NCBI GenBank assembly: GCA_016196035.1 | Contig: JACPYM010000113.1 | Span: 1 to 64,000 of the forward strand | Reading direction: 5' to 3' | From: Acidobacteriota bacterium | GTDB lineage: Bacteria; Acidobacteriota; Blastocatellia; RBC074 | DNA: 64,000 bases | Part shown: in pieces, positions 29,425 to 38,959 of the stretch | Numbering within the stretch: the stretch's first letter is position 1 | How the letters are laid out: every line of letters starts with the position of its first letter | Position numbers and translations under genes: made by a program | Notes under the pieces: model-generated | The model's input: the letters and a program-made list of their open reading frames with translations, nothing else | The model's database searches: none | What the model was told of the DNA's origin: nothing

Positions 29425-32214
29425 ATGCAGGAATGGATTGGGCCAGGCATGGTGCTCGGCGACTACCAAATCGTTGCGAGAATCGAACACGAAGTCTTTC
29501 TTGTCCGCGCAGAGAATGGGAGCGCGGCCACGCTCAAATTGCTTGCCGGTCATCTGGCGTGGGAACCAGCCACGCTGAAGCGCTTTATCAATGCCGTCAA
29601 GGCCGCCCCGCCGCTCGATCATCGCAATATTTGCCGCACCTTCGATGCGGGCGCAACCCAAGGCGGGCGTCCCTTCGTCGTCAGCGAAGTGGTGCATGGC
29701 CGCCCGCTGAGCGCACTGGAAATCGGCTTAGGACGCACGCTGGCCGCGCGCCTGGAACTCGCCAGCCAAATCGCCGAGGCCGTCGCCGCCGCGCACGCCT
29801 GCGGGGTCTTGCATCTTGAGCTAACGCCCAACAAGGTCTTGGTGGAATATGACCGCCAACTCAAAGACGCCCATTGGATCAACGAATATGCAGACAAGGT
29901 GAATGAATCTTTGGTCGCGCTCAATTTTGCGGGCCGCGTCAAAGTCCTGGATTTCGCCGTTATGATGGCGGCCCTGGGCGCGCCGCTCAACCGCGATACC
30001 TTTTCGCTACAGCCCTTCACGTCGAAAGAAACACTGCCTTATTGCAGCCCCGAGTGGGTGAGCGGTGAAAAGCTGACCCCGCAATCAGACATCTTCAGCT
30101 TAGGCGTGCTGGTGTATGAATTGTTGACCGGCAATCGCCCGTTCGCCGGCGAAACGCTGGAGGAAATCCGCTGGTCAATTTTCACCGATGAGCCGCAATC
30201 GCTGACGGATTTCGTCCCCGAACTCAGTCTCTCGATCAATCAAGCGGTCTTAAAGGCTTTGGCCAAAGACCCCGAACAACGGTTTCGCACAGCAGGCGCG
30301 TTCGCCCAAGCCTTGCGCGGCCTGATGCATGAGGAAACCGAAAGCGAGTTGCAACGCGCCGCCGCCGCCGCCCGCGAGGCGCGCTCGCTCAAGCTACGCT
30401 GGCAGGGGTTTTGGCCGCAGGTGCTGGCTTGGTTGAATAATCATTGGCGGCGCGGTGTGGCAGGCAGCATTGTGCTGTTTGAGATTTTCTTTATCGCCGC
30501 GATCTTGATTCACTCGCAGCGCGGTGCGCGCGAAGAAGCCGCCATTGACGGCCCGCGCGAAGGGGTGCCCCTGACACGCCTGACGCACCAAGGCACCGTC
30601 CACGCGGCGGCGCTGGCACCCGATGGAAAAGGGTTGGCGTATCTGATCGAAGAACCTGAACGTCAGAGCATTCTGTTCAATCCCTTTGGCCAGCAAACCA
30701 AGGACGGCAAACCCCTGCCCGAAATCTTGCTGGTGACTTCCAAAACCGCCCAACTCTCGGCGTTGACCTGCGCCCCCAGCGGCGATTTTGTTTATTACTT
30801 AAGCAACTTGCCCGGTGCCGCTGCGGAATTGAAACGCGTGCCGCTTAGTGGCGGGCCAGTACAAAGCCTCTTGCCTGAGGCCGCCAGTCCGGTGGGCTTT
30901 GCGCCGGATCGTAAACAATTCGCCTTGGCGCGTTCGCAAGGCGAGCAGACCCAAATCGTCATTAGCGGACTAAATGGACAGAGCTTGCGTGTGCTGGGTA
31001 GCTGGCCGATCTCAAATGCCTTGGCGAATGTCGCCCCGGCCTGGTCGCACGATGGCAAGACAATCGTTTGCGGATTGCGGCCTGCCGGGCATGATTTCGG
31101 CTATGCGTTAATCGCCCTGGACGTGGCGAGCGGTCAGCAACGCACGCTGGCGGATGGTCAATGGGTTGAAATCTACGGGCTGGGCTGGCTGCCCGGCGAT
31201 CAAGCCTTATTCGTGAATGCGCGCCGGCTCGGCACTGATAAAGGCCAAATCTGGCGGGTCAACACGGAGACTCGGCAGCTTACAGCCTTGACGCAAGGCG
31301 TAGACGATTATCGCGGTCTGAGTTTGAGTGGCGATGGCAGCCGCTTGCTCACGGTTTATACCGAACACAGAGCCTCGCTTTGGCTGGGGCTGGATGAACA
31401 GGCGCAGCCCTTATCCGCAACCAACATTGAAGCACACGCCGGGTTCACCTGGCTGAATGACAATCAGCTTGTTTACGCAGTCGCGCGCGCCGCTGAAATG
31501 GAATTGCGCGAAACGGCCACCGATGGCAAACCATCAAAACTCTTTGGCAAACTCGAGGCGGGCATCAGGCCATTGGGGTTTGCCGCCGCCAGCACCACCG
31601 ACACGCAAAATCCTGGCGTGATTTTTGCGGCAGCCCAAGAGCGCACTCTCAACCTTTGGCAAGGCGTACATGGCAGCGCCATCCGGCCACTTACTACATT
31701 GCCGTTTGCGCTGTGGCCGCAGTTGACCGCGGAGGGTCACAAGTTGCTTTATTCGAAACTGGTCAATGGCAAAGCCACGCTGGAACTCAAACCGCTTGGC
31801 GCTGAGACAGGCACGCAGCTTTTAGAACGCGGCGTTTGGGGCGGCGTCGCTTCGCCAAAGGGCGATTTGTTGGCCGCCAATGCGTTTGTTGAAAAACTGG
31901 GCCAATGGCAATTGCGCATCTGGCCTTTGAACGGTGGCCCGGCGGTGCAAGTCTTCGAGTTGCCGGGGGGCCAGCCGCGACGCTTGCGCTGGACGCCGGA
32001 TGGCAGCGCGCTGGTTTATACAGTGGCCGAGCATGGCGCAGACAATCTTTGGCAACAGCCTCTCGCGGGTGGATCGGCTACCCCGCTGACCAAACTTAGC
32101 AAACAACACCTTTATGATTTCGCCTGGTCACCGGCGGGAAAACACCTTGCGCTTTTACGGGGTGAACCGCAAAGCGATGCCGTTTTGCTTGCAACAGACA
32201 AGCTGCCACATTAA
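29425..32214 (+). CDS. Membrane pseudokinase with periplasmic beta-propeller, paralogue 1
   Basis: This is a 929-residue protein. Residues 8-290 are a Ser/Thr-kinase-like fold: K38 in ATLKLL, SPEWVSGEKLTPQSDIFSLG and VLKALAKDPEQRFRTA are conserved. The glycine loop is absent, however, and the catalytic loop reads HLELTPNK (H130 to K137). The catalytic Asp is therefore Glu, the Lys is Thr and the Asn is Lys. DFG is DFA (D176). A membrane helix follows (about 342-363, SIVLFEIFFIAAILI). The rest is a WD40/PD40 TolB-like propeller (LTHQGTVHAAALAPDGKGLA, PAWSHDGKTIVCGL). The architecture is typical of Acidobacteriota sensor kinases, but this one is probably catalytically dead. Confidence 0.88.
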   Translation: MQEWIGPGMVLGDYQIVARIEHEVFLVRAENGSAATLKLLAGHLAWEPATLKRFINAVKAAPPLDHRNICRTFDAGATQGGRPFVVSEVVHGRPLSALEIGLGRTLAARLELASQIAEAVAAAHACGVLHLELTPNKVLVEYDRQLKDAHWINEYADKVNESLVALNFAGRVKVLDFAVMMAALGAPLNRDTFSLQPFTSKETLPYCSPEWVSGEKLTPQSDIFSLGVLVYELLTGNRPFAGETLEEIRWSIFTDEPQSLTDFVPELSLSINQAVLKALAKDPEQRFRTAGAFAQALRGLMHEETESELQRAAAAAREARSLKLRWQGFWPQVLAWLNNHWRRGVAGSIVLFEIFFIAAILIHSQRGAREEAAIDGPREGVPLTRLTHQGTVHAAALAPDGKGLAYLIEEPERQSILFNPFGQQTKDGKPLPEILLVTSKTAQLSALTCAPSGDFVYYLSNLPGAAAELKRVPLSGGPVQSLLPEAASPVGFAPDRKQFALARSQGEQTQIVISGLNGQSLRVLGSWPISNALANVAPAWSHDGKTIVCGLRPAGHDFGYALIALDVASGQQRTLADGQWVEIYGLGWLPGDQALFVNARRLGTDKGQIWRVNTETRQLTALTQGVDDYRGLSLSGDGSRLLTVYTEHRASLWLGLDEQAQPLSATNIEAHAGFTWLNDNQLVYAVARAAEMELRETATDGKPSKLFGKLEAGIRPLGFAAASTTDTQNPGVIFAAAQERTLNLWQGVHGSAIRPLTTLPFALWPQLTAEGHKLLYSKLVNGKATLELKPLGAETGTQLLERGVWGGVASPKGDLLAANAFVEKLGQWQLRIWPLNGGPAVQVFELPGGQPRRLRWTPDGSALVYTVAEHGADNLWQQPLAGGSATPLTKLSKQHLYDFAWSPAGKHLALLRGEPQSDAVLLATDKLPH

Positions 32215-32461
32215 CCCGCTTCCGCCTTCCCAACCGCCGCGCAGCAAGAAAAAAATCCCGTCGTGCCGTCAGCGAGCCTCAGTGTCGCAGGTTTACACCG
32301 GTCTCGCCGTAGCGCAACGTCCTCATCCTCATACTCTCAGGCCATCTTTGGTTGAAAATTGCAAAAAAACCTCGCTATCTACCAGTCATTTTGTTTATTA
32401 TCCAGACGTTCCCTGTCCCTAACAGAGGTGATTGAAGACTCAAGTTGAGTGGAGATCGGTG

Positions 32462-35158
32462 ATGAAGGAATGGTTACGCTCTGGCACGATGATTCAGCAG
32501 TATCGCATTGTGATGCGCATCGGTGTCAGTGCAATTGGTGAAGTTTATCAGGTACGTGATGATGTCAATTTCCGCGACTGCGCGTTGAAATTGCTCTCGG
32601 CCAATCTTTTGTGGGATGACAACAGCCGGCAACGATTTCTGCAAATCGTAAAATCCGCCCCGCCCCTCGATCATCCGAACATCAGCAAAATTCTGGATGC
32701 CGGTGTGACAGCCAGTGGTCAGCCGTTTGTCGTCACCGAGATTGTGCATGGCCGCACGCTGGATGAAATCGGCATCGGCCTGGCACGCAAACTTGGGGAC
32801 AAGATTCAAATTGCGATTGAAACAGCAGACGCGCTGGCCGCCGCGCATGCCCAGGGCATTTTGCATTTGGGGCTGAAGCCCGCCAATGTGATGCTCGATC
32901 ACCAAAGCAAAATCCGCGTGCTGGATTTTGCCGTCACCCTGGCGACGCAAATTGCGTTGATGTCGCGCGGCCCCAAAGCCCCGCCCCAGCAAATGACCAT
33001 CGGCAAGGCGCGTTATCTCAGCCCGGAACAGATTCGGGGTGAAAAACCGACGCCGCAATCCGATATATTCAGCTTGGGCATCCTGGTCTACGAACTCTTT
33101 TCCAGTCAGTTGCCGTTTCCTGGCAAATCCATTGAAGAGGTTTGCCACAATATCTTGAACACCGAGCCGGAACCGCTCACCCTCGAAAACCACGAGGTCC
33201 CGCCTGCGGTAAACCCGATTTTGATGAAAGCGCTCGCCAAAAACCCGGCGCAACGTTACCGCACAGCCGCCGAATTCGCCGCCGCCTTACGCCAATTGGC
33301 TGTTGAAGAAAAGACGGCGGAACTAGCCCGATCAAAAGGCAAACTCAAAAAGGACAATGAAGGGGCGGAGGAACTGGAGACCCAAAGCTGGCTGGAATTG
33401 CTGAAAGAGTTGCTCAAGAAACTCCAAAAGCAATTGATCATCTCACTCATCTTCGCCATCACGGCGGCGGCGTTTGGGCTGACTTACTATTATCGCAAAG
33501 ACCAAAACTTCAAACTTCCCGAAGAGTTATTGCCCTTCACCAAAATCACCACCAGCGGCAAGGTGCTCGAGGCGGTGCTTTCCCCGGATGGCAAGGGCCT
33601 TGCGTATTTGGTTGAAGATGGGCCGCGCCAAAATCTGCTATATCAAAATCTCAAAGACCGGCGCGACCGCTTGATCTATTCCACCAAAGACACCGAGATT
33701 GGCGGACTCACTTTTTCGCGGTTCAATGATTTCGTTTATTTCGTGAAGTCCGCCCCTGCACCCAGCGAACTATACAAAGTTCCTATCACCGGCGGCGTCA
33801 CGCCGAAAATTCTGGCGAACATCGCCAGTCCGGTGACGACCTCACCGAGCAACCAGCAAATCGCCTTTGTGCGGCAGAACGGCGCTGAGTCACAGTTGGT
33901 GAGCTACGATCTCAAAAACCAAACCGAAAACGTCATCACCACGCGCCAAAGCCCCACCCAATTTGTCGCCAGCGGCCCGGCCTGGTCGCAAGATGGCAAG
34001 CTGATCGCTTGTGCAGTGAAGAAGGCCACCGATGATTTGACGTTCGATATTGTGTTGATTGATGTCGAGGGGGGCATCGAAAAACCATTTGTTTCCGGGC
34101 CTTGGGTTGAAATCAGCCGCCTCGCCTGGATGGCTGGCGATGAAGGGTTATTGGTCAACGGGCGGACACTCGAAGCGCAGCAATGGCAAATCTGGCGTAT
34201 TCTGCGCGCCACTGGTGAAGTGCGGGCCATGACCAACGGCGTCAATGACTATCGCGGCTTGAGCCTGACCAATGACCGGCGCCTGGCACTCAGCGTCAAT
34301 TTTGTGCGTGATGTCGTGCTTTGGCTGGGCACCAGCGACAGCGCGCAGCAATTGACCATCGGCCAGGATGACGGGGTCAGCGGTTTGGCATGGGCTGGAA
34401 ATCACCAATTGATTTATACCTCGCGCGCCAACCATCGCGACGAACTCTGGTTGAAAAAAACCGACAGCACGCCGACACAATTCCTGAAAACCTTTTGGCC
34501 ACCGAACTCCCGCGCGGTCTTAAATCCAATTGGCACGGCAACCGGCCAGAGCGCGATCTTCGCCGCTGTCGTGGGCGATCAGGCGCAACTCTGGCAGGGC
34601 GATCTTTCCGGCGACAACAAAATGCAGCAACTGACAAACGGCCAGGTCACGCTCTTCCCGCAATTGAGCAGTGATGGCGGGACGTTGTTCTATTCACTGC
34701 TTGCCAACGGTCGCGCGTCCATCGCCAAACGAAAGCTGAGCAATGGCGAAACGGCGGTCTTGCTCGAAGGCCACGCCTGGGGCGGCGTTGTTTCGCCTGA
34801 TGGCAGCCGGATGGCGTGCAACTTCTTCGATGAGGCCAGCAATTCCTGGAAACTGCTGGTCGCACCAGTGGCGGGCGGCGCCCCCGCCGTCAAATTTGAT
34901 TTGCCTGGCACGGCCCACCGCCTGTTGCGCTGGCTTCCTGATGGCTCGGGCATCGCCTATCCGGTTACGCAACGCGGCGTGACGAATTTATGGAAACAGC
35001 CCTTGGATGGTAGCGCCCCCAGCACACTCACCACGTTTACGAAACATCGCATTTACAACTTTGCCTGGTCGCCCGACGGCCAACAACTGGCGGTTTCCCG
35101 TGGCCGGCGCATCAGCGATGCCGTCACCATCAGCGGCTGGGCCACCGACAAACGCTAA
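32462..35158 (+). CDS. Membrane pseudokinase with periplasmic beta-propeller, paralogue 2
   Basis: This is an 898-residue protein, taking ATG 32462 with GGAG eight bases upstream rather than a TTG 30 bases earlier. The kinase-like domain (about residues 10-285) keeps K43 (CALKLL), KPAN and SPEQIRGEKPTPQSDIFSLG. The catalytic HRD is HLG (H135 to G137) and DFG is DFA (D155), so the catalytic Asp is missing. One membrane helix lies at about 324-346 (ISLIFAITAAAFGLTYY), followed by a PD40 propeller (VLSPDGKGLAYLVE, PAWSQDGKLIACAV, FAWSPDGQQLAVSRG). It arose by duplication with the upstream gene and the two probably act together. Confidence 0.88.
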   Translation: MKEWLRSGTMIQQYRIVMRIGVSAIGEVYQVRDDVNFRDCALKLLSANLLWDDNSRQRFLQIVKSAPPLDHPNISKILDAGVTASGQPFVVTEIVHGRTLDEIGIGLARKLGDKIQIAIETADALAAAHAQGILHLGLKPANVMLDHQSKIRVLDFAVTLATQIALMSRGPKAPPQQMTIGKARYLSPEQIRGEKPTPQSDIFSLGILVYELFSSQLPFPGKSIEEVCHNILNTEPEPLTLENHEVPPAVNPILMKALAKNPAQRYRTAAEFAAALRQLAVEEKTAELARSKGKLKKDNEGAEELETQSWLELLKELLKKLQKQLIISLIFAITAAAFGLTYYYRKDQNFKLPEELLPFTKITTSGKVLEAVLSPDGKGLAYLVEDGPRQNLLYQNLKDRRDRLIYSTKDTEIGGLTFSRFNDFVYFVKSAPAPSELYKVPITGGVTPKILANIASPVTTSPSNQQIAFVRQNGAESQLVSYDLKNQTENVITTRQSPTQFVASGPAWSQDGKLIACAVKKATDDLTFDIVLIDVEGGIEKPFVSGPWVEISRLAWMAGDEGLLVNGRTLEAQQWQIWRILRATGEVRAMTNGVNDYRGLSLTNDRRLALSVNFVRDVVLWLGTSDSAQQLTIGQDDGVSGLAWAGNHQLIYTSRANHRDELWLKKTDSTPTQFLKTFWPPNSRAVLNPIGTATGQSAIFAAVVGDQAQLWQGDLSGDNKMQQLTNGQVTLFPQLSSDGGTLFYSLLANGRASIAKRKLSNGETAVLLEGHAWGGVVSPDGSRMACNFFDEASNSWKLLVAPVAGGAPAVKFDLPGTAHRLLRWLPDGSGIAYPVTQRGVTNLWKQPLDGSAPSTLTTFTKHRIYNFAWSPDGQQLAVSRGRRISDAVTISGWATDKR

Positions 35159-35302: not shown

Positions 35303-35467
35303 CTAGATCAGTTTTCACTTCAGTACGGGACGGTACCGCGCGCGTCAGCAAGCGGCGCGTCAAGTATGACGCAGTGGTGCAACTGCGCGGTCTCCGCTTG
35401 CTCACGTGCGCGGTACCGTCCTGGCACTGTGCGCCTTACCGTACACGCGAATGAAAACCGATCTAAG
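35303..35467. repeat. Dispersed palindromic element, copy B
   Basis: The ends CTAGATCAGTTTTCACTTC and GAAAACCGATCTAAGG, with internal arms GACGGTACCGCGCGCGTC and CGTGCGCGGTACCGTC, match copies A and C. This copy is intergenic, downstream of the second pseudokinase. Confidence 0.8.
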
Positions 35468-35498
35468 GCTCCACATTCCAAAGCGTAACCTTCAGGCT

Positions 35499-35565
35499 GT
35501 GCCCTTACCGGTCGCAGTACTGACTCGGCAGCATCCCTCAAAATCAGCTTGATGGAGTACTAGGC
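35499..35565 (+). repeat. Dispersed ~67-bp repeat, copy 2
   Basis: It aligns with 20313-20379 (GGTCGCAGTACTGACTCGGC ... TTGATGGAGTACTAGGC), with scattered substitutions. It is non-coding. Confidence 0.65.
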
Positions 35566-35573
35566 CCTGTCTC

Positions 35574-35665
35574 CACGCGCGTATTGAACCGCCGCCAGAA
35601 CAATGACAACATAATCACCGGCAAATTCGCCGAAGCTGCCAGCGCAAAGGCTAACGCAACCAGCC
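35574..35665 (-). pseudogene. Fragment of a sodium:solute symporter gene
   Basis: About 90 bases match the symporter gene at 40142-40232 at nearly every position (for example TATTGAACCGCCGCCAGAAC and ATCACCGGCAAATTCGCCGA). They correspond to the membrane segment reading [20 protein letters not shown]. It has no start, stop or flanking gene context, so it is a partial duplication or a remnant of a deleted paralogue. Confidence 0.7.
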
Positions 35666-35676
35666 AATAGTTTGGT

Positions 35677-35928
35677 CAGATTGCTCCCTGCACCGCACAA
35701 ATCGCTCCCTACACCGCGCAAGTTGCTCTATACACTGCACAAGTCGCCCTCTACAGCGCGCAAGTCGTTCCGTACACCGCACGAGCCGTTCCGTACACCG
35801 CGCAAATCGCTCTTTACACCGCTCAGATCGCACCCCGCAGCGTCCAAATCGCTTCCTACGCCGCGCAACTTGCTCTTTACACCGCTCAGATCGCATTCCG
35901 CAGCGTCCAAATCGCTTCGTACAGTCAG
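35677..35928. repeat. Twelve-unit 21-bp tandem repeat
   Basis: The consensus is about CAAATCGCTCTCTACACCGCG, repeated twelve times with variation. Because 21 is a multiple of three, several frames stay open and give heptad peptides (AQIALYT on plus, RCKERLA-like on minus). No credible start site or family match supports translation. Confidence 0.85.
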
Positions 35929-35960
35929 AAATCTGCTTATTTTCCTTCGCTAGGGCTGAT

Positions 35961-36224
35961 GTCAGGACACTTTTGAAAAAACGGCTTTGGTTTTCGCCGC
36001 GTTAGCGGCGGCTGACTTTAGCCCGGCGTTTCAACGCCGGGAGGTGGCACCCGAATTGCCGCGCGTCGCGTAGCGACGGTTGAAATTGGAGCCATTGTCG
36101 TGCGAGTTTCAAGCGACGCGAATCTGCTTTGCTCGCTCACTCAGCCCTAAAGGATTGTGGCTCAAGTCAGCCGCCACTAACGCGGCGAAGAACGGAAGTT
36201 TCCGGTAAAACAAAAGTGTCCTGA
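35961..36224. repeat. MITE-like element with TCAGGACACTTTTG inverted ends (~264 bp)
   Basis: The ends GTCAGGACACTTTTG and CAAAAGTGTCCTGAT are inverted. A second inner inverted pair is CGCCGCGTTAGCGGCGGCTG and CAGCCGCCACTAACGCGGCG. A GCCCGGCGTTTCAACGCCGGG palindrome lies inside. No transposase frame is present, so it is probably a non-autonomous element. Confidence 0.75.
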
Positions 36225-36335
36225 TTTTAGAAGCAGGATAGACAGATTCGACCTTCGCCCAGCCTGTAAATCCTAAAAATCGTGGTAATCCTGTGCCAAT
36301 CTTTGTGGTTCTGATTTAGCCGCTCTTTGCGGAGG

Positions 36336-36514
36336 CTTAGATCGGTTTTCACTTCGGTGTACGGGAAAACCGCGCAGCGGGACAGTACCGCGCGCGTCAG
36401 CAAGCGGTGTTTGAGCCGTTGAACCACTGGTGCAACGACGCTGCGCCGCTTGCTGACGCGCGCGGTACCGTCCCCACACGCTGCCCCGTACACGCAATTG
36501 CAAACTGATCTAGG
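36336..36514. repeat. Dispersed palindromic element, copy C
   Basis: The ends CTTAGATCGGTTTTCACTTC and GCAATTGCAAACTGATCTAG, with inner arms GGGACAGTACCGCGCGCGTC and GACGCGCGCGGTACCGTCCC, make this the best match to copy A. From 36515 to 37344 I find no supported gene. Confidence 0.85.
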
Positions 36515-37344: not shown

Positions 37345-37716
37345 ATGTCAATTGATCATGACCAATTTCTAGCCCAAACAGTATCGATCGCCGAGAGATT
37401 CACCCTGCTTCGAGACTTGAGACATGCAGATGGCATGAATGATCGGAAGCCGCAAACGGACCTAGAGCAACAAGTCTCCCAACAAACAGAGGCGGCAGAG
37501 AAGATTGCCAATGACCCCTCAATTCGCGCGAGAATCTGCGCAGGAGCACAAAGTGCAACGGCAAATATCAAAGACATCGCTAAATTAGTTGTAGCTTCGG
37601 CCCTGCCACTTAGCCTTGCGGGCACAATAACGATCCCCTTCACTCCCATTCTGGCGGCTGCGGTAGTGATCATCATCATTGACTCCGGCATATCCGCATA
37701 CTGCAAGGAGAAATGA
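37345..37716 (+). CDS. Small membrane protein of unknown function (cassette gene 1)
   Basis: This is a 123-residue protein with no family recognised. Residues 1-75 are soluble and helical, with a coiled-coil-like DLEQQVSQQTEAAEKIANDP segment. Residues about 78-117 hold one long or two short hydrophobic helices (KLVVASALPLSLAGTI, TPILAAAVVIIIIDSGI), with a short KEK tail. It is followed after four bases by the HExxH peptidase gene, whose ribosome binding site overlaps its last codons. The base composition is clearly more A+T-rich than the surroundings, and the unit ends in an attC site. It could be a substrate, anchor or regulator of the peptidase. Confidence 0.65.
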   Translation: MSIDHDQFLAQTVSIAERFTLLRDLRHADGMNDRKPQTDLEQQVSQQTEAAEKIANDPSIRARICAGAQSATANIKDIAKLVVASALPLSLAGTITIPFTPILAAAVVIIIIDSGISAYCKEK

Positions 37717-37720
37717 CAAG

Positions 37721-38959
37721 TTGGAACCTAATCTCATACAAAGCGAGAAGGCAAAGGCCCTTGTTTCGGGCTTAGAGTCCCAATTTGAGGGGAAGGGTCG
37801 CTACGGCAATAGAGACCACGAGCCATTCATCAGCAATTACGTTGCTGAGTTTGCGGAACGCAATGGTATTAGCACCGCTGAAGCGACACGCCTGACGCGA
37901 GAGCTAATCTCTGAGTTTGAGTGCTTTCGAATAACTGGAAAAGAAAATCCGATATACTTTTCTAAGTGCTGCCAAATCGCATCAAAGGCATTGTCGCTGC
38001 TCAGCGGCAACAATCTAGACCTGCCCAACTATGTGTCCGTGGGCCTTGTTGAAAGGCATGAGATTACGAGTTTGGCTCTTCCAAGCCTCGACCCACCGCT
38101 ATTGCTATTCTCAAGTGGGCAGTTTGAGCTTATCGGCGACATAGCGTTTCTCTGCGCCAACCCAATTCTCAGGGCCGCGCAGCAGGGATTGCTGATTGGA
38201 GTCACCGGACTTGATGAAGAAGAAGCTACACTCCTCTCCGAGATCGTCGCTTATCACGCCTTGTCGAGTCAGAGTTTCTCATCTTCAAATGGCCAATCCA
38301 TTTTCATCGAAGATCGCCATATCGACCCACCTGTATTGCAAGCAAGAGTCAGTGGAGATTCGCACCGGAAACACTTCCTGAACCTCTTCCATTCAGGTAA
38401 AGAGGAGCTATATAACTTCGTGATTGCCCACGAAGTCGCTCATACATCAACGCAGGCAAAAGACTTCGCTGGCAATTCTGCAAGGGAGCCCCAGGAGTTA
38501 TTCTGCGACAGAGTCGCAATTTGGTATGCCATAACTCAGACGCTGAATTCATCAGCGCAAATGCAAGACCATCCTAGAATGGTGTACGCCAAACTAATGA
38601 TGCTTCTTTCCTATATTCAGATTAGTACATTCGTGGAGATGGCGAAGATTGCAGAGAGAAAGGGTATTGGCGCACTTGACGTTTCTAGTTCCAAGCGACA
38701 CTCCGAGTACCCTTCCTTTCAGGTCAGGATGAACTCCGCGAAGGCGACACTCTTCGAGTTTATGTCAGACATGTTCGGTCCCTCTGCAGAGCAGAACGTA
38801 GAGGCGTTGTGGAACGAAGTGGGTGGACAGAACGGTGAGGCATTTCGGGCCATGGCTCCCGAGATCGACTCGCACCTAAAGAGAGTCTACGATCCGTGCG
38901 CCATGGTAGAGTTTCTCCGAGAACAACACTATGATGATGGCACGTCGCAAGGCTCATGA
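37721..38959 (+). CDS. HExxH zinc-metallopeptidase-like protein (cassette gene 2)
   Basis: This is a 412-residue protein. TTG 37721 is chosen because AAGGAG lies ten bases upstream; an ATG at 37712 is in another frame and stops quickly. A zinc-peptidase signature is present: IAHEVAHTSTQ (H237, E238, H241), followed about 20 residues later by EPQELFCDRVAIWY, whose Glu and Asp suit the third ligand and support residues of gluzincin-like peptidases. The N-terminal half (residues 1-190, including AERNGISTAEATRLTRELIS) is helical and unrecognised. There is no signal peptide, so it is probably cytoplasmic. It lies in an operon with the small membrane gene. Context suggests a mobile accessory function such as defence or toxin activity, which is inference only. 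Confidence 0.72.
   Translation: MEPNLIQSEKAKALVSGLESQFEGKGRYGNRDHEPFISNYVAEFAERNGISTAEATRLTRELISEFECFRITGKENPIYFSKCCQIASKALSLLSGNNLDLPNYVSVGLVERHEITSLALPSLDPPLLLFSSGQFELIGDIAFLCANPILRAAQQGLLIGVTGLDEEEATLLSEIVAYHALSSQSFSSSNGQSIFIEDRHIDPPVLQARVSGDSHRKHFLNLFHSGKEELYNFVIAHEVAHTSTQAKDFAGNSAREPQELFCDRVAIWYAITQTLNSSAQMQDHPRMVYAKLMMLLSYIQISTFVEMAKIAERKGIGALDVSSSKRHSEYPSFQVRMNSAKATLFEFMSDMFGPSAEQNVEALWNEVGGQNGEAFRAMAPEIDSHLKRVYDPCAMVEFLREQHYDDGTSQGS

What the first reader, a model, noticed from the sequence alone, without database searches (positions are those of the whole stretch)
29425..35158. Tandem membrane pseudokinases fused to beta-propellers
Both paralogues keep the beta-3 Lys, the DF(A) Asp and the SPE motif but lose the catalytic Asp of the HRD loop (Glu in one, Gly in the other), and DFG is DFA in both. 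Different losses in the two suggest scaffolding or a sensing role rather than random decay. The periplasmic propellers may sense an envelope ligand.
Basis: seen in the sequence. Interest (0 to 1): 0.58.

Follow-up and report, generated by a model that had tools for sequence, protein, structure and literature searches.

The report
Dead-kinase receptors with periplasmic propellers
Two neighbouring genes of a soil-type bacterium encode membrane receptors whose kinase half has lost its catalytic machinery but is still kept by selection, so they probably signal by holding or switching partner proteins rather than by adding phosphate.

Summary
Window 29425-32214 (K1) and 32462-35158 (K2; ATG start) encode kinase-fold / one-TM / double beta-propeller proteins, 37% identical. 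Both keep the beta3 Lys, DFG Asp and SPE. One orthologue exists in a same-genus genome (HLS, DFV, alphaC Ile), so the loss is fixed at the same positions while letters vary. The three form one clade (100/100). Canonical residues are intact in 85 of 92 fully readable kinase ORFs of the genome, 30 of 30 congener kinases checked and 48 of 48 class relatives examined. The dead kinase domain is the best conserved part (dN 0.40, dS 1.6), so decay is unlikely. It is a genus-restricted pseudokinase receptor nested in a large expansion of active kinases. Best guess: a non-catalytic membrane receptor that docks partners; K2 may still bind nucleotide, K1 probably not. The hydrophobic N-lobe dimer residue is polar in all three, which argues against PknB/PknD-style trans-activation. 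New variant of a known kind; partners and ligand unknown.

The parts
29425..32214 (+). K1: 929-aa pseudokinase / TM / double-propeller protein
29425..30357 (+). K1 pseudokinase domain (residues 1-311)
   Evidence: PF00069 69.5 bits over residues 49-290; coordinates
29536..29538 (+). K1 beta3 Lys38 (kept)
29593..29595 (+). K1 Ala57 at the alphaC Glu position (lost)
29812..29820 (+). K1 HLE in place of HRD
29845..29922 (+). K1 about 26-residue insertion between catalytic loop and DFA
   Evidence: gap in K2 and orthologue; coordinates approximate
29950..29958 (+). K1 DFA in place of DFG
30454..30510 (+). K1 hydrophobic segment 344-362 (probable TM)
   Evidence: hydropathy
30562..32211 (+). K1 double beta-propeller
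   Evidence: PD40; mostly strands, pLDDT mainly 60-90
32462..35158 (+). K2: 898-aa pseudokinase / TM / double-propeller protein (ATG start)
32462..33331 (+). K2 pseudokinase domain (residues 1-290)
   Evidence: PF00069 103.2 bits; model matches PknA/PknB, Z 26-27
32588..32590 (+). K2 beta3 Lys43 (kept)
32645..32647 (+). K2 Ile62 at the alphaC Glu position (lost)
32864..32872 (+). K2 HLG in place of HRD
32885..32887 (+). K2 Asn142, Mg-binding Asn (kept)
32924..32932 (+). K2 DFA in place of DFG
33434..33490 (+). K2 hydrophobic segment 325-343 (probable TM)
   Evidence: hydropathy; helix 302-344 in the model, low pLDDT
33518..35155 (+). K2 double beta-propeller; second propeller TolB-like
   Evidence: PD40; 631-874 on TolB, Z 24, 2.3-2.6 A

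Best explanation
K1 and K2 are membrane receptors with a catalytically dead kinase domain, kept for a non-catalytic role. SHOWN from sequence: a PknB-type kinase domain without catalytic base, HRD Arg, alphaC Glu and DFG Gly; one hydrophobic segment; a double propeller whose second half is TolB-like; one ancestral loss shared by K1, K2 and a congener; continued constraint on the kinase fold. INFERRED: the propellers lie in the periplasm and bind an envelope protein or polymer; binding or clustering is passed through the TM helix to the pseudokinase, which docks a cytoplasmic partner (an active kinase paralogue, an FHA protein or a substrate) through its C-lobe and alphaD surface instead of phosphorylating it. 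K2 keeps Lys43, Asn142 and Asp155 and may still bind nucleotide as a switch; K1, without Gly-loop, Asn and catalytic Lys, probably does not.
For: Lost residues. Same positions lost in the congener orthologue L024. One clade 100/100 with all 20 comparison proteins outside it: (kinase domains only, 131 rows: 100). Constraint: K2 against orthologue, kinase domain 55.5% identical, dN 0.40 / dS 1.62; linker 25%, dN 0.97; propeller 43.6%, dN 0.59; the kinase-domain identity lies within the range of 23 reciprocal-best kinase pairs of the two genomes (53.5-83.9%), third lowest. Scaffold residues kept: HRD His, DFG Phe, SPE Glu, alphaF Asp, Arg265/286. Twelve of 91 columns invariant in the three are rare (<5%) in canonical kinases, among them I105, L107 and R109. 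Known precedents, EssB/YukC and MviN, are non-catalytic membrane pseudokinases (PMC12599244, parts 1-4 of 8 read).
Against: No partner, ligand or expression evidence. Neighbouring genes are not conserved with the congener (there an IlvD-like fragment upstream and a potassium-channel-like gene downstream, both my reading of the sequence; here acyl-CoA dehydrogenase upstream). The clade has only three members in two genomes; dS is near saturation; 'specific' columns from three sequences are weak. Some kinases without canonical residues are active. The K2 model is of modest confidence (pLDDT 65.7) and K1's kinase domain is not reliably modelled (pLDDT mostly below 50).
Confidence: 0.6

Rival explanations
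1. Allosteric activator: the pseudokinase forms the PknB/PknD-type N-lobe dimer with an active kinase paralogue and switches it on.
For: N-lobe dimerisation activates PknD and PknB (PMC3601408, passages); the MviN pseudokinase forms a dimer that resembles it (PMC12599244); three own kinases with intact sites carry a related double propeller (32, 30 and 27% identity; L125, L097, L124); the PknB D76 position is Asp in all three.
Against: The PknB L33 position is hydrophobic or aromatic in at least 170 of 175 canonical domains but Asn, Asn, Gln in the clade; PknB L33 mutants are in PDB titles, their link to dimerisation is recalled. The PknB R10 position is Gln/Thr in K2 and the orthologue (but Arg in only 50 of 175 canonical domains, so this says little); K1 is not aligned there.
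Confidence: 0.15
2. Unusual enzyme: K2 keeps the metal-binding Asn/Asp pair and beta3 Lys and transfers something other than phosphate (AMP as SelO, glutamate as SidJ), or phosphorylates weakly.
For: K43, K139, N142 and D155 are kept in K2 and the orthologue; SelO and SidJ show that the fold can do this (PMC12599244).
Against: K1, of the same clade, has lost the Asn and catalytic Lys and has no Gly-rich loop; the HRD position differs in all three (G, E, S), so no new base is fixed; the second Gly of the loop is Ser in K2 and the orthologue.
Confidence: 0.1
3. Decoy or sink: the propellers compete with active propeller kinases or winged-helix propeller regulators for one envelope ligand, and the dead kinase domain only anchors or stabilises the receptor.
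For: Related propellers occur on kinases with intact sites and on winged-helix (Trans_reg_C) proteins of the same genome.
Against: The kinase domain is better conserved than the propeller, so it is more than an anchor; propeller identity to those proteins is only 27-36%, so a shared ligand is unlikely.
Confidence: 0.08
4. Decaying duplicates on the way to loss.
For: K1 has a shortened Gly-loop, an insertion and a long branch (1.52).
Against: Two intact ORFs of about 900 codons; the loss predates the species split; dN well below dS in the kinase domain; fold-determining residues kept.
Confidence: 0.05

Closest known systems
PknD of Mycobacterium tuberculosis (active receptor kinase with a beta-propeller sensor)
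   Same: Kinase with an extracellular beta-propeller sensor (PMC2877116 and PMC3601408, passages).
   Different: PknD is active and has one six-bladed propeller; K1 and K2 lack the catalytic residues and have two PD40/TolB-like propellers.
Kinase-PD40/TolB propeller proteins with intact sites in relatives (e.g. L027, L028, L003; own L125, L097, L124)
   Same: Same domain order; 31-32% full-length identity to K2 (L027, L028, L003), 27-32% over the propeller alone (own L125, L097, L124).
   Different: All of those checked have intact Lys, Glu, HRD Asp, Asn and DFG.
MviN pseudokinase (ActPs3) and EssB/YukC
   Same: Bacterial, membrane-linked, kinase fold, non-catalytic (PMC12599244).
   Different: Those have all three motifs degraded; K1 and K2 keep beta3 Lys and DFG Asp; no propeller is described for them in the parts read.
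ActPs1 pseudokinases with a C-terminal PQQ_2 domain
   Same: Pseudokinase followed by a domain that I recall as a propeller-repeat domain (PMC12599244).
   Different: Mainly actinobacterial, all three catalytic residues replaced.

Membership tests
PknB-like (eukaryotic-type) Ser/Thr kinase fold | Sequence and fold match to the Pkinase domain | tested here: met
   PF00069 69.5 and 103.2 bits, cut-off 31.7; K2 model on PknA/PknB Z 26-27, 2.4-3.0 A over 254-262 residues; K1's kinase domain not reliably modelled
Catalytically active Ser/Thr kinase | HRD catalytic Asp | tested here: not met
   E132 in K1, G137 in K2, S137 in the orthologue
Catalytically active Ser/Thr kinase | beta3 Lys paired with alphaC Glu | tested here: not met
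   Lys kept, Glu replaced by A, I, I
Pseudokinase (definition in PMC12599244: beta3 Lys, HRD Asp or DFG Asp lost) | At least one of the three residues lost | tested here: met
   HRD Asp lost in all three clade members; absence of activity itself not tested
ActPs1, ActPs2, ActPs3, GLW families (as described in PMC12599244) | Divergence of all three motifs, beta3 Lys included | tested here: not met
   beta3 Lys and DFG Asp kept in all three; family profiles were not available to scan
DYD and DLHK families (as described in PMC12599244) | beta3 Lys replaced, HRD and/or DFG motif kept | tested here: not met
   the reverse pattern here: beta3 Lys kept, HRD Asp lost
CP1 family (as described in PMC12599244) | Linked to a COG3899 domain, no TM | tested here: not met
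   TM segment and PD40 propellers instead; COG3899 itself was not scanned
PknD-type propeller receptor kinases | Cytoplasmic kinase / TM / extracytoplasmic propeller | tested here: met
   Domain order and one hydrophobic segment; the side of the membrane is inferred
PASTA kinase PknB/Stk1 (NF033483) | Whole-protein curated cut-off | tested here: not met
   143.8, 214.7 and 227 bits against 450; no PASTA domain in the Pfam scan

The most novel reading that the evidence does not exclude
K1 and K2 are a divided-labour pseudokinase pair: K2 a nucleotide-responsive switch (Lys, Asn, DFG Asp kept) and K1 a nucleotide-free docking platform, joined through a new (non PknB-type) interface and reporting envelope state from their TolB-like propellers; this would be a phosphorylation-free receptor branch grown inside a kinome of nearly a hundred kinases with mostly intact sites.
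Probability: 0.12. Interest if true: 0.55.

Novelty: new variant of a known kind. Interest (0 to 1): 0.33.

Why it matters
Bacterial pseudokinases are little studied: the 2025 review sorts them into seven families, and the parts read describe none that keeps the beta3 Lys and DFG Asp while losing the catalytic Asp as its rule, nor one with TolB-like propellers. Here the dead branch lies inside a large active expansion with related propellers, so dead and live receptors with comparable sensors can be compared in one genome, a natural test of what a receptor kinase does without catalysis. The scope is narrow, two genomes of one genus so far.

Tried and rejected
Random decay: rejected on intact ORFs, constraint and pre-speciation loss. 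Orthologues elsewhere: none beyond the congener in 162 class genomes at E<=1e-150, in 396 phylum genomes at E<=1e-170, or in one scan of genome contigs (32 pattern stretches, 1 relative); the next match is G157 at 598 bits, canonical (L027). A plasmid search gave one 29% propeller-only match. K1 orthologue in the congener: not seen, but that assembly is 73% complete. Order of K1/K2 duplication against species split: unresolved. Operon logic: no promoter-like or terminator-like site of note between K1 and K2; terminator-like counts match shuffles, 14 found against a mean of 12.6. Fold of K1's kinase domain: model too poor to use. The second-look fold table is filled by kinase rows, so absence of other propeller families there says nothing. 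Literature for this combination: searches showed, by their listings, no paper on propeller-bearing pseudokinases in Acidobacteriota; only PMC open-licence papers are held, and the bSTK atlas cited by the review was not read. My census profile was trained on 60 sequences that carry HRD/DFG motifs, so it favours finding canonical kinases; and because 'canonical' was defined on six columns, the 175-of-175 values at those six columns are by construction; the HRD-Arg, L33 and HRD-His columns were not part of that definition.

Full report
WHAT IS THERE. The window is G000:C113, part of a 9.6 Mb genome in 139 contigs. Its one same-genus orthologue contig carries the title 'Acidobacteria bacterium isolate S-RSF-IL-17'; the window's own organism name was not given. 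Two ORFs lie head to tail: K1 29425-32214 (929 aa) and K2 32462-35158 (898 aa from the ATG; the TTG at 32432 adds ten residues that neither K1 nor the orthologue has). They are 37% identical over their full length. Both have a Pkinase domain, one hydrophobic segment (K1 344-362, K2 325-343) and about 545 residues with PD40 repeats. The AlphaFold2 model of K2 (pLDDT 65.7, three-row alignment) fits PknA/PknB over residues 1-285 (Z 26-27) and TolB over residues 631-874 (Z 24, 2.3-2.6 A); in the Foldseek search the propeller region aligned, loosely (rmsd 11-15 A over 557-668 columns), with axonemal proteins that I recall as having two propellers. The K1 model is usable for the propellers only.

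CATALYTIC RESIDUES. Against 175 distinct canonical kinase domains (85 own, 90 from relatives): beta3 Lys kept in both; alphaC Glu lost (A57, I62); HRD read as HLE and HLG; catalytic Lys T134 in K1, kept in K2; Mg-binding Asn K137 in K1, kept in K2; DFG read as DFA in both; SPE kept; HRD His, DFG Phe, SPE Glu and alphaF Asp kept. The Gly-rich loop is deleted in K1 and reads GVSAIG in K2. The HRD Arg, not used to define the canonical set, is Arg in 175 of 175 there and Leu in K1, K2 and the orthologue.

ORTHOLOGUE. L024 (405-3239), also G003:C1143, is 46% identical to K2. It reads HLS, DFV, alphaC Ile, with Lys43, Lys139, Asn142 and Asp155 kept. So the same positions are lost with other letters, and the loss is most simply one event before the K1/K2/orthologue splits. 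Its neighbours differ (window neighbours), and K1 has no counterpart in that 73%-complete assembly. No other orthologue was found in 162 class genomes, 396 phylum genomes or one genome-contig scan.

CENSUS. The genome has 106 Pkinase matches, read here as 99 ORFs, fragments included; 7 could not be read at all six sites; of the other 92, 85 are canonical and 7 are not. K1 and K2 are the only two of those 92 without the HRD Asp. L137 (HNH) also lacks it but is one of the seven partly read. L119 differs in other residues, and L111, L117, L133 and L135 have single differences that may be real or alignment effects. Congener: 30 of the 30 fetched kinases (of 57 matches) are canonical. Class relatives with a full-length match: 48 of 48 examined are canonical, of 49 listed besides the three clade members. 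Eleven family relatives fetched and five neighbouring kinase fragments were canonical too, some of them the same genes fetched twice. Three own kinases with intact sites carry a related double propeller (L125 32%, L097 30%, L124 27%), and the propeller also occurs behind a Trans_reg_C winged helix in L019 and L023.

CONSTRAINT. K1, K2 and the orthologue form one clade: 100/100 in a full-length tree of 23 proteins, and 100 in a kinase-domain tree of 131 rows. K2 against orthologue (Nei-Gojobori): kinase domain 55.5% identity, dN 0.40, dS 1.62; linker and TM 25%, 0.97, 1.67; propeller 43.6%, 0.59, 3.48. dS is near saturation, so ratios are rough, but the dead kinase domain is the best conserved part. 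Its identity is third lowest of 23 reciprocal-best kinase pairs between the two genomes (range 53.5-83.9%): fast, not free. Of 91 columns invariant in the three, 12 carry residues found in under 5% of canonical kinases, including I105, L107 and R109 and L136 of the HRD site. With three sequences this is a hint only.

MECHANISM. Shown: fold, missing residues, common origin, constraint. Inferred: dead enzyme, periplasmic propellers, non-catalytic docking. PknD and PknB are switched on by N-lobe dimerisation (PMC3601408, passages), so a dead partner could activate a live one. But the residue matching PknB L33 is hydrophobic or aromatic in at least 170 of 175 canonical domains and is Asn, Asn, Gln in the clade, which counts against that route. 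I therefore favour docking or scaffolding through another surface, with K2 possibly nucleotide-responsive and K1 not.

PLACE AMONG KNOWN KINDS. The review PMC12599244 (parts 1-4 of 8 read; none of the terms propeller, acidobacter, wd40, tolb in its text) lists seven bacterial pseudokinase families; the pattern here, Lys and DFG Asp kept with the catalytic Asp lost, fits none as described there (its CP1 family is mixed in this respect, but has other domains and no TM). Kinase homologues without the catalytic Asp, and kinases tethered to WD, PQQ or PD40 repeats, were both recorded long ago (PMC1262709, PMC2877116, passages). Large Ser/Thr kinase paralogue families in an acidobacterium are also in print (PMC3174227, passages). 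So this is a new variant of a known kind, of moderate interest.

Noticed in passing
L119:1581-4559 (-), G000:C22: A 993-aa protein with FHA, kinase-like domain (beta3 Arg, alphaC Gln, VRD, Asn to Thr, DFG read as GYN) and an MFS_1 transporter region: a second, unrelated probable pseudokinase, joined to a transporter.
   Followed up: partly
window 35664-35915: Direct repeats with a 21-nt period, nine overlapping 84-nt copies at 67-75% identity to the reference copy, just downstream of K2 in a gene-poor stretch.
   Followed up: no
window 35326-36490: About 1.1 kb bounded by a 32-nt perfect inverted repeat with further inner inverted and direct repeats; perhaps a mobile-element remnant.
   Followed up: no
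L019:1483-3759 (-) and L023:895-3174 (+): Winged-helix (Trans_reg_C) proteins with the same kind of propeller (34% identical to K2's by BLASTP): one sensor type wired to DNA-binding or kinase outputs.
   Followed up: partly
L063 (G000:C64:209600-227000): Five kinase ORFs in a row within about 17 kb.
   Followed up: no
window 37679-38959: 426-aa ORF with an HEVAH (HExxH-type) motif and no Pfam match at 1e-5; possibly an unassigned metalloprotease-like protein.
   Followed up: no
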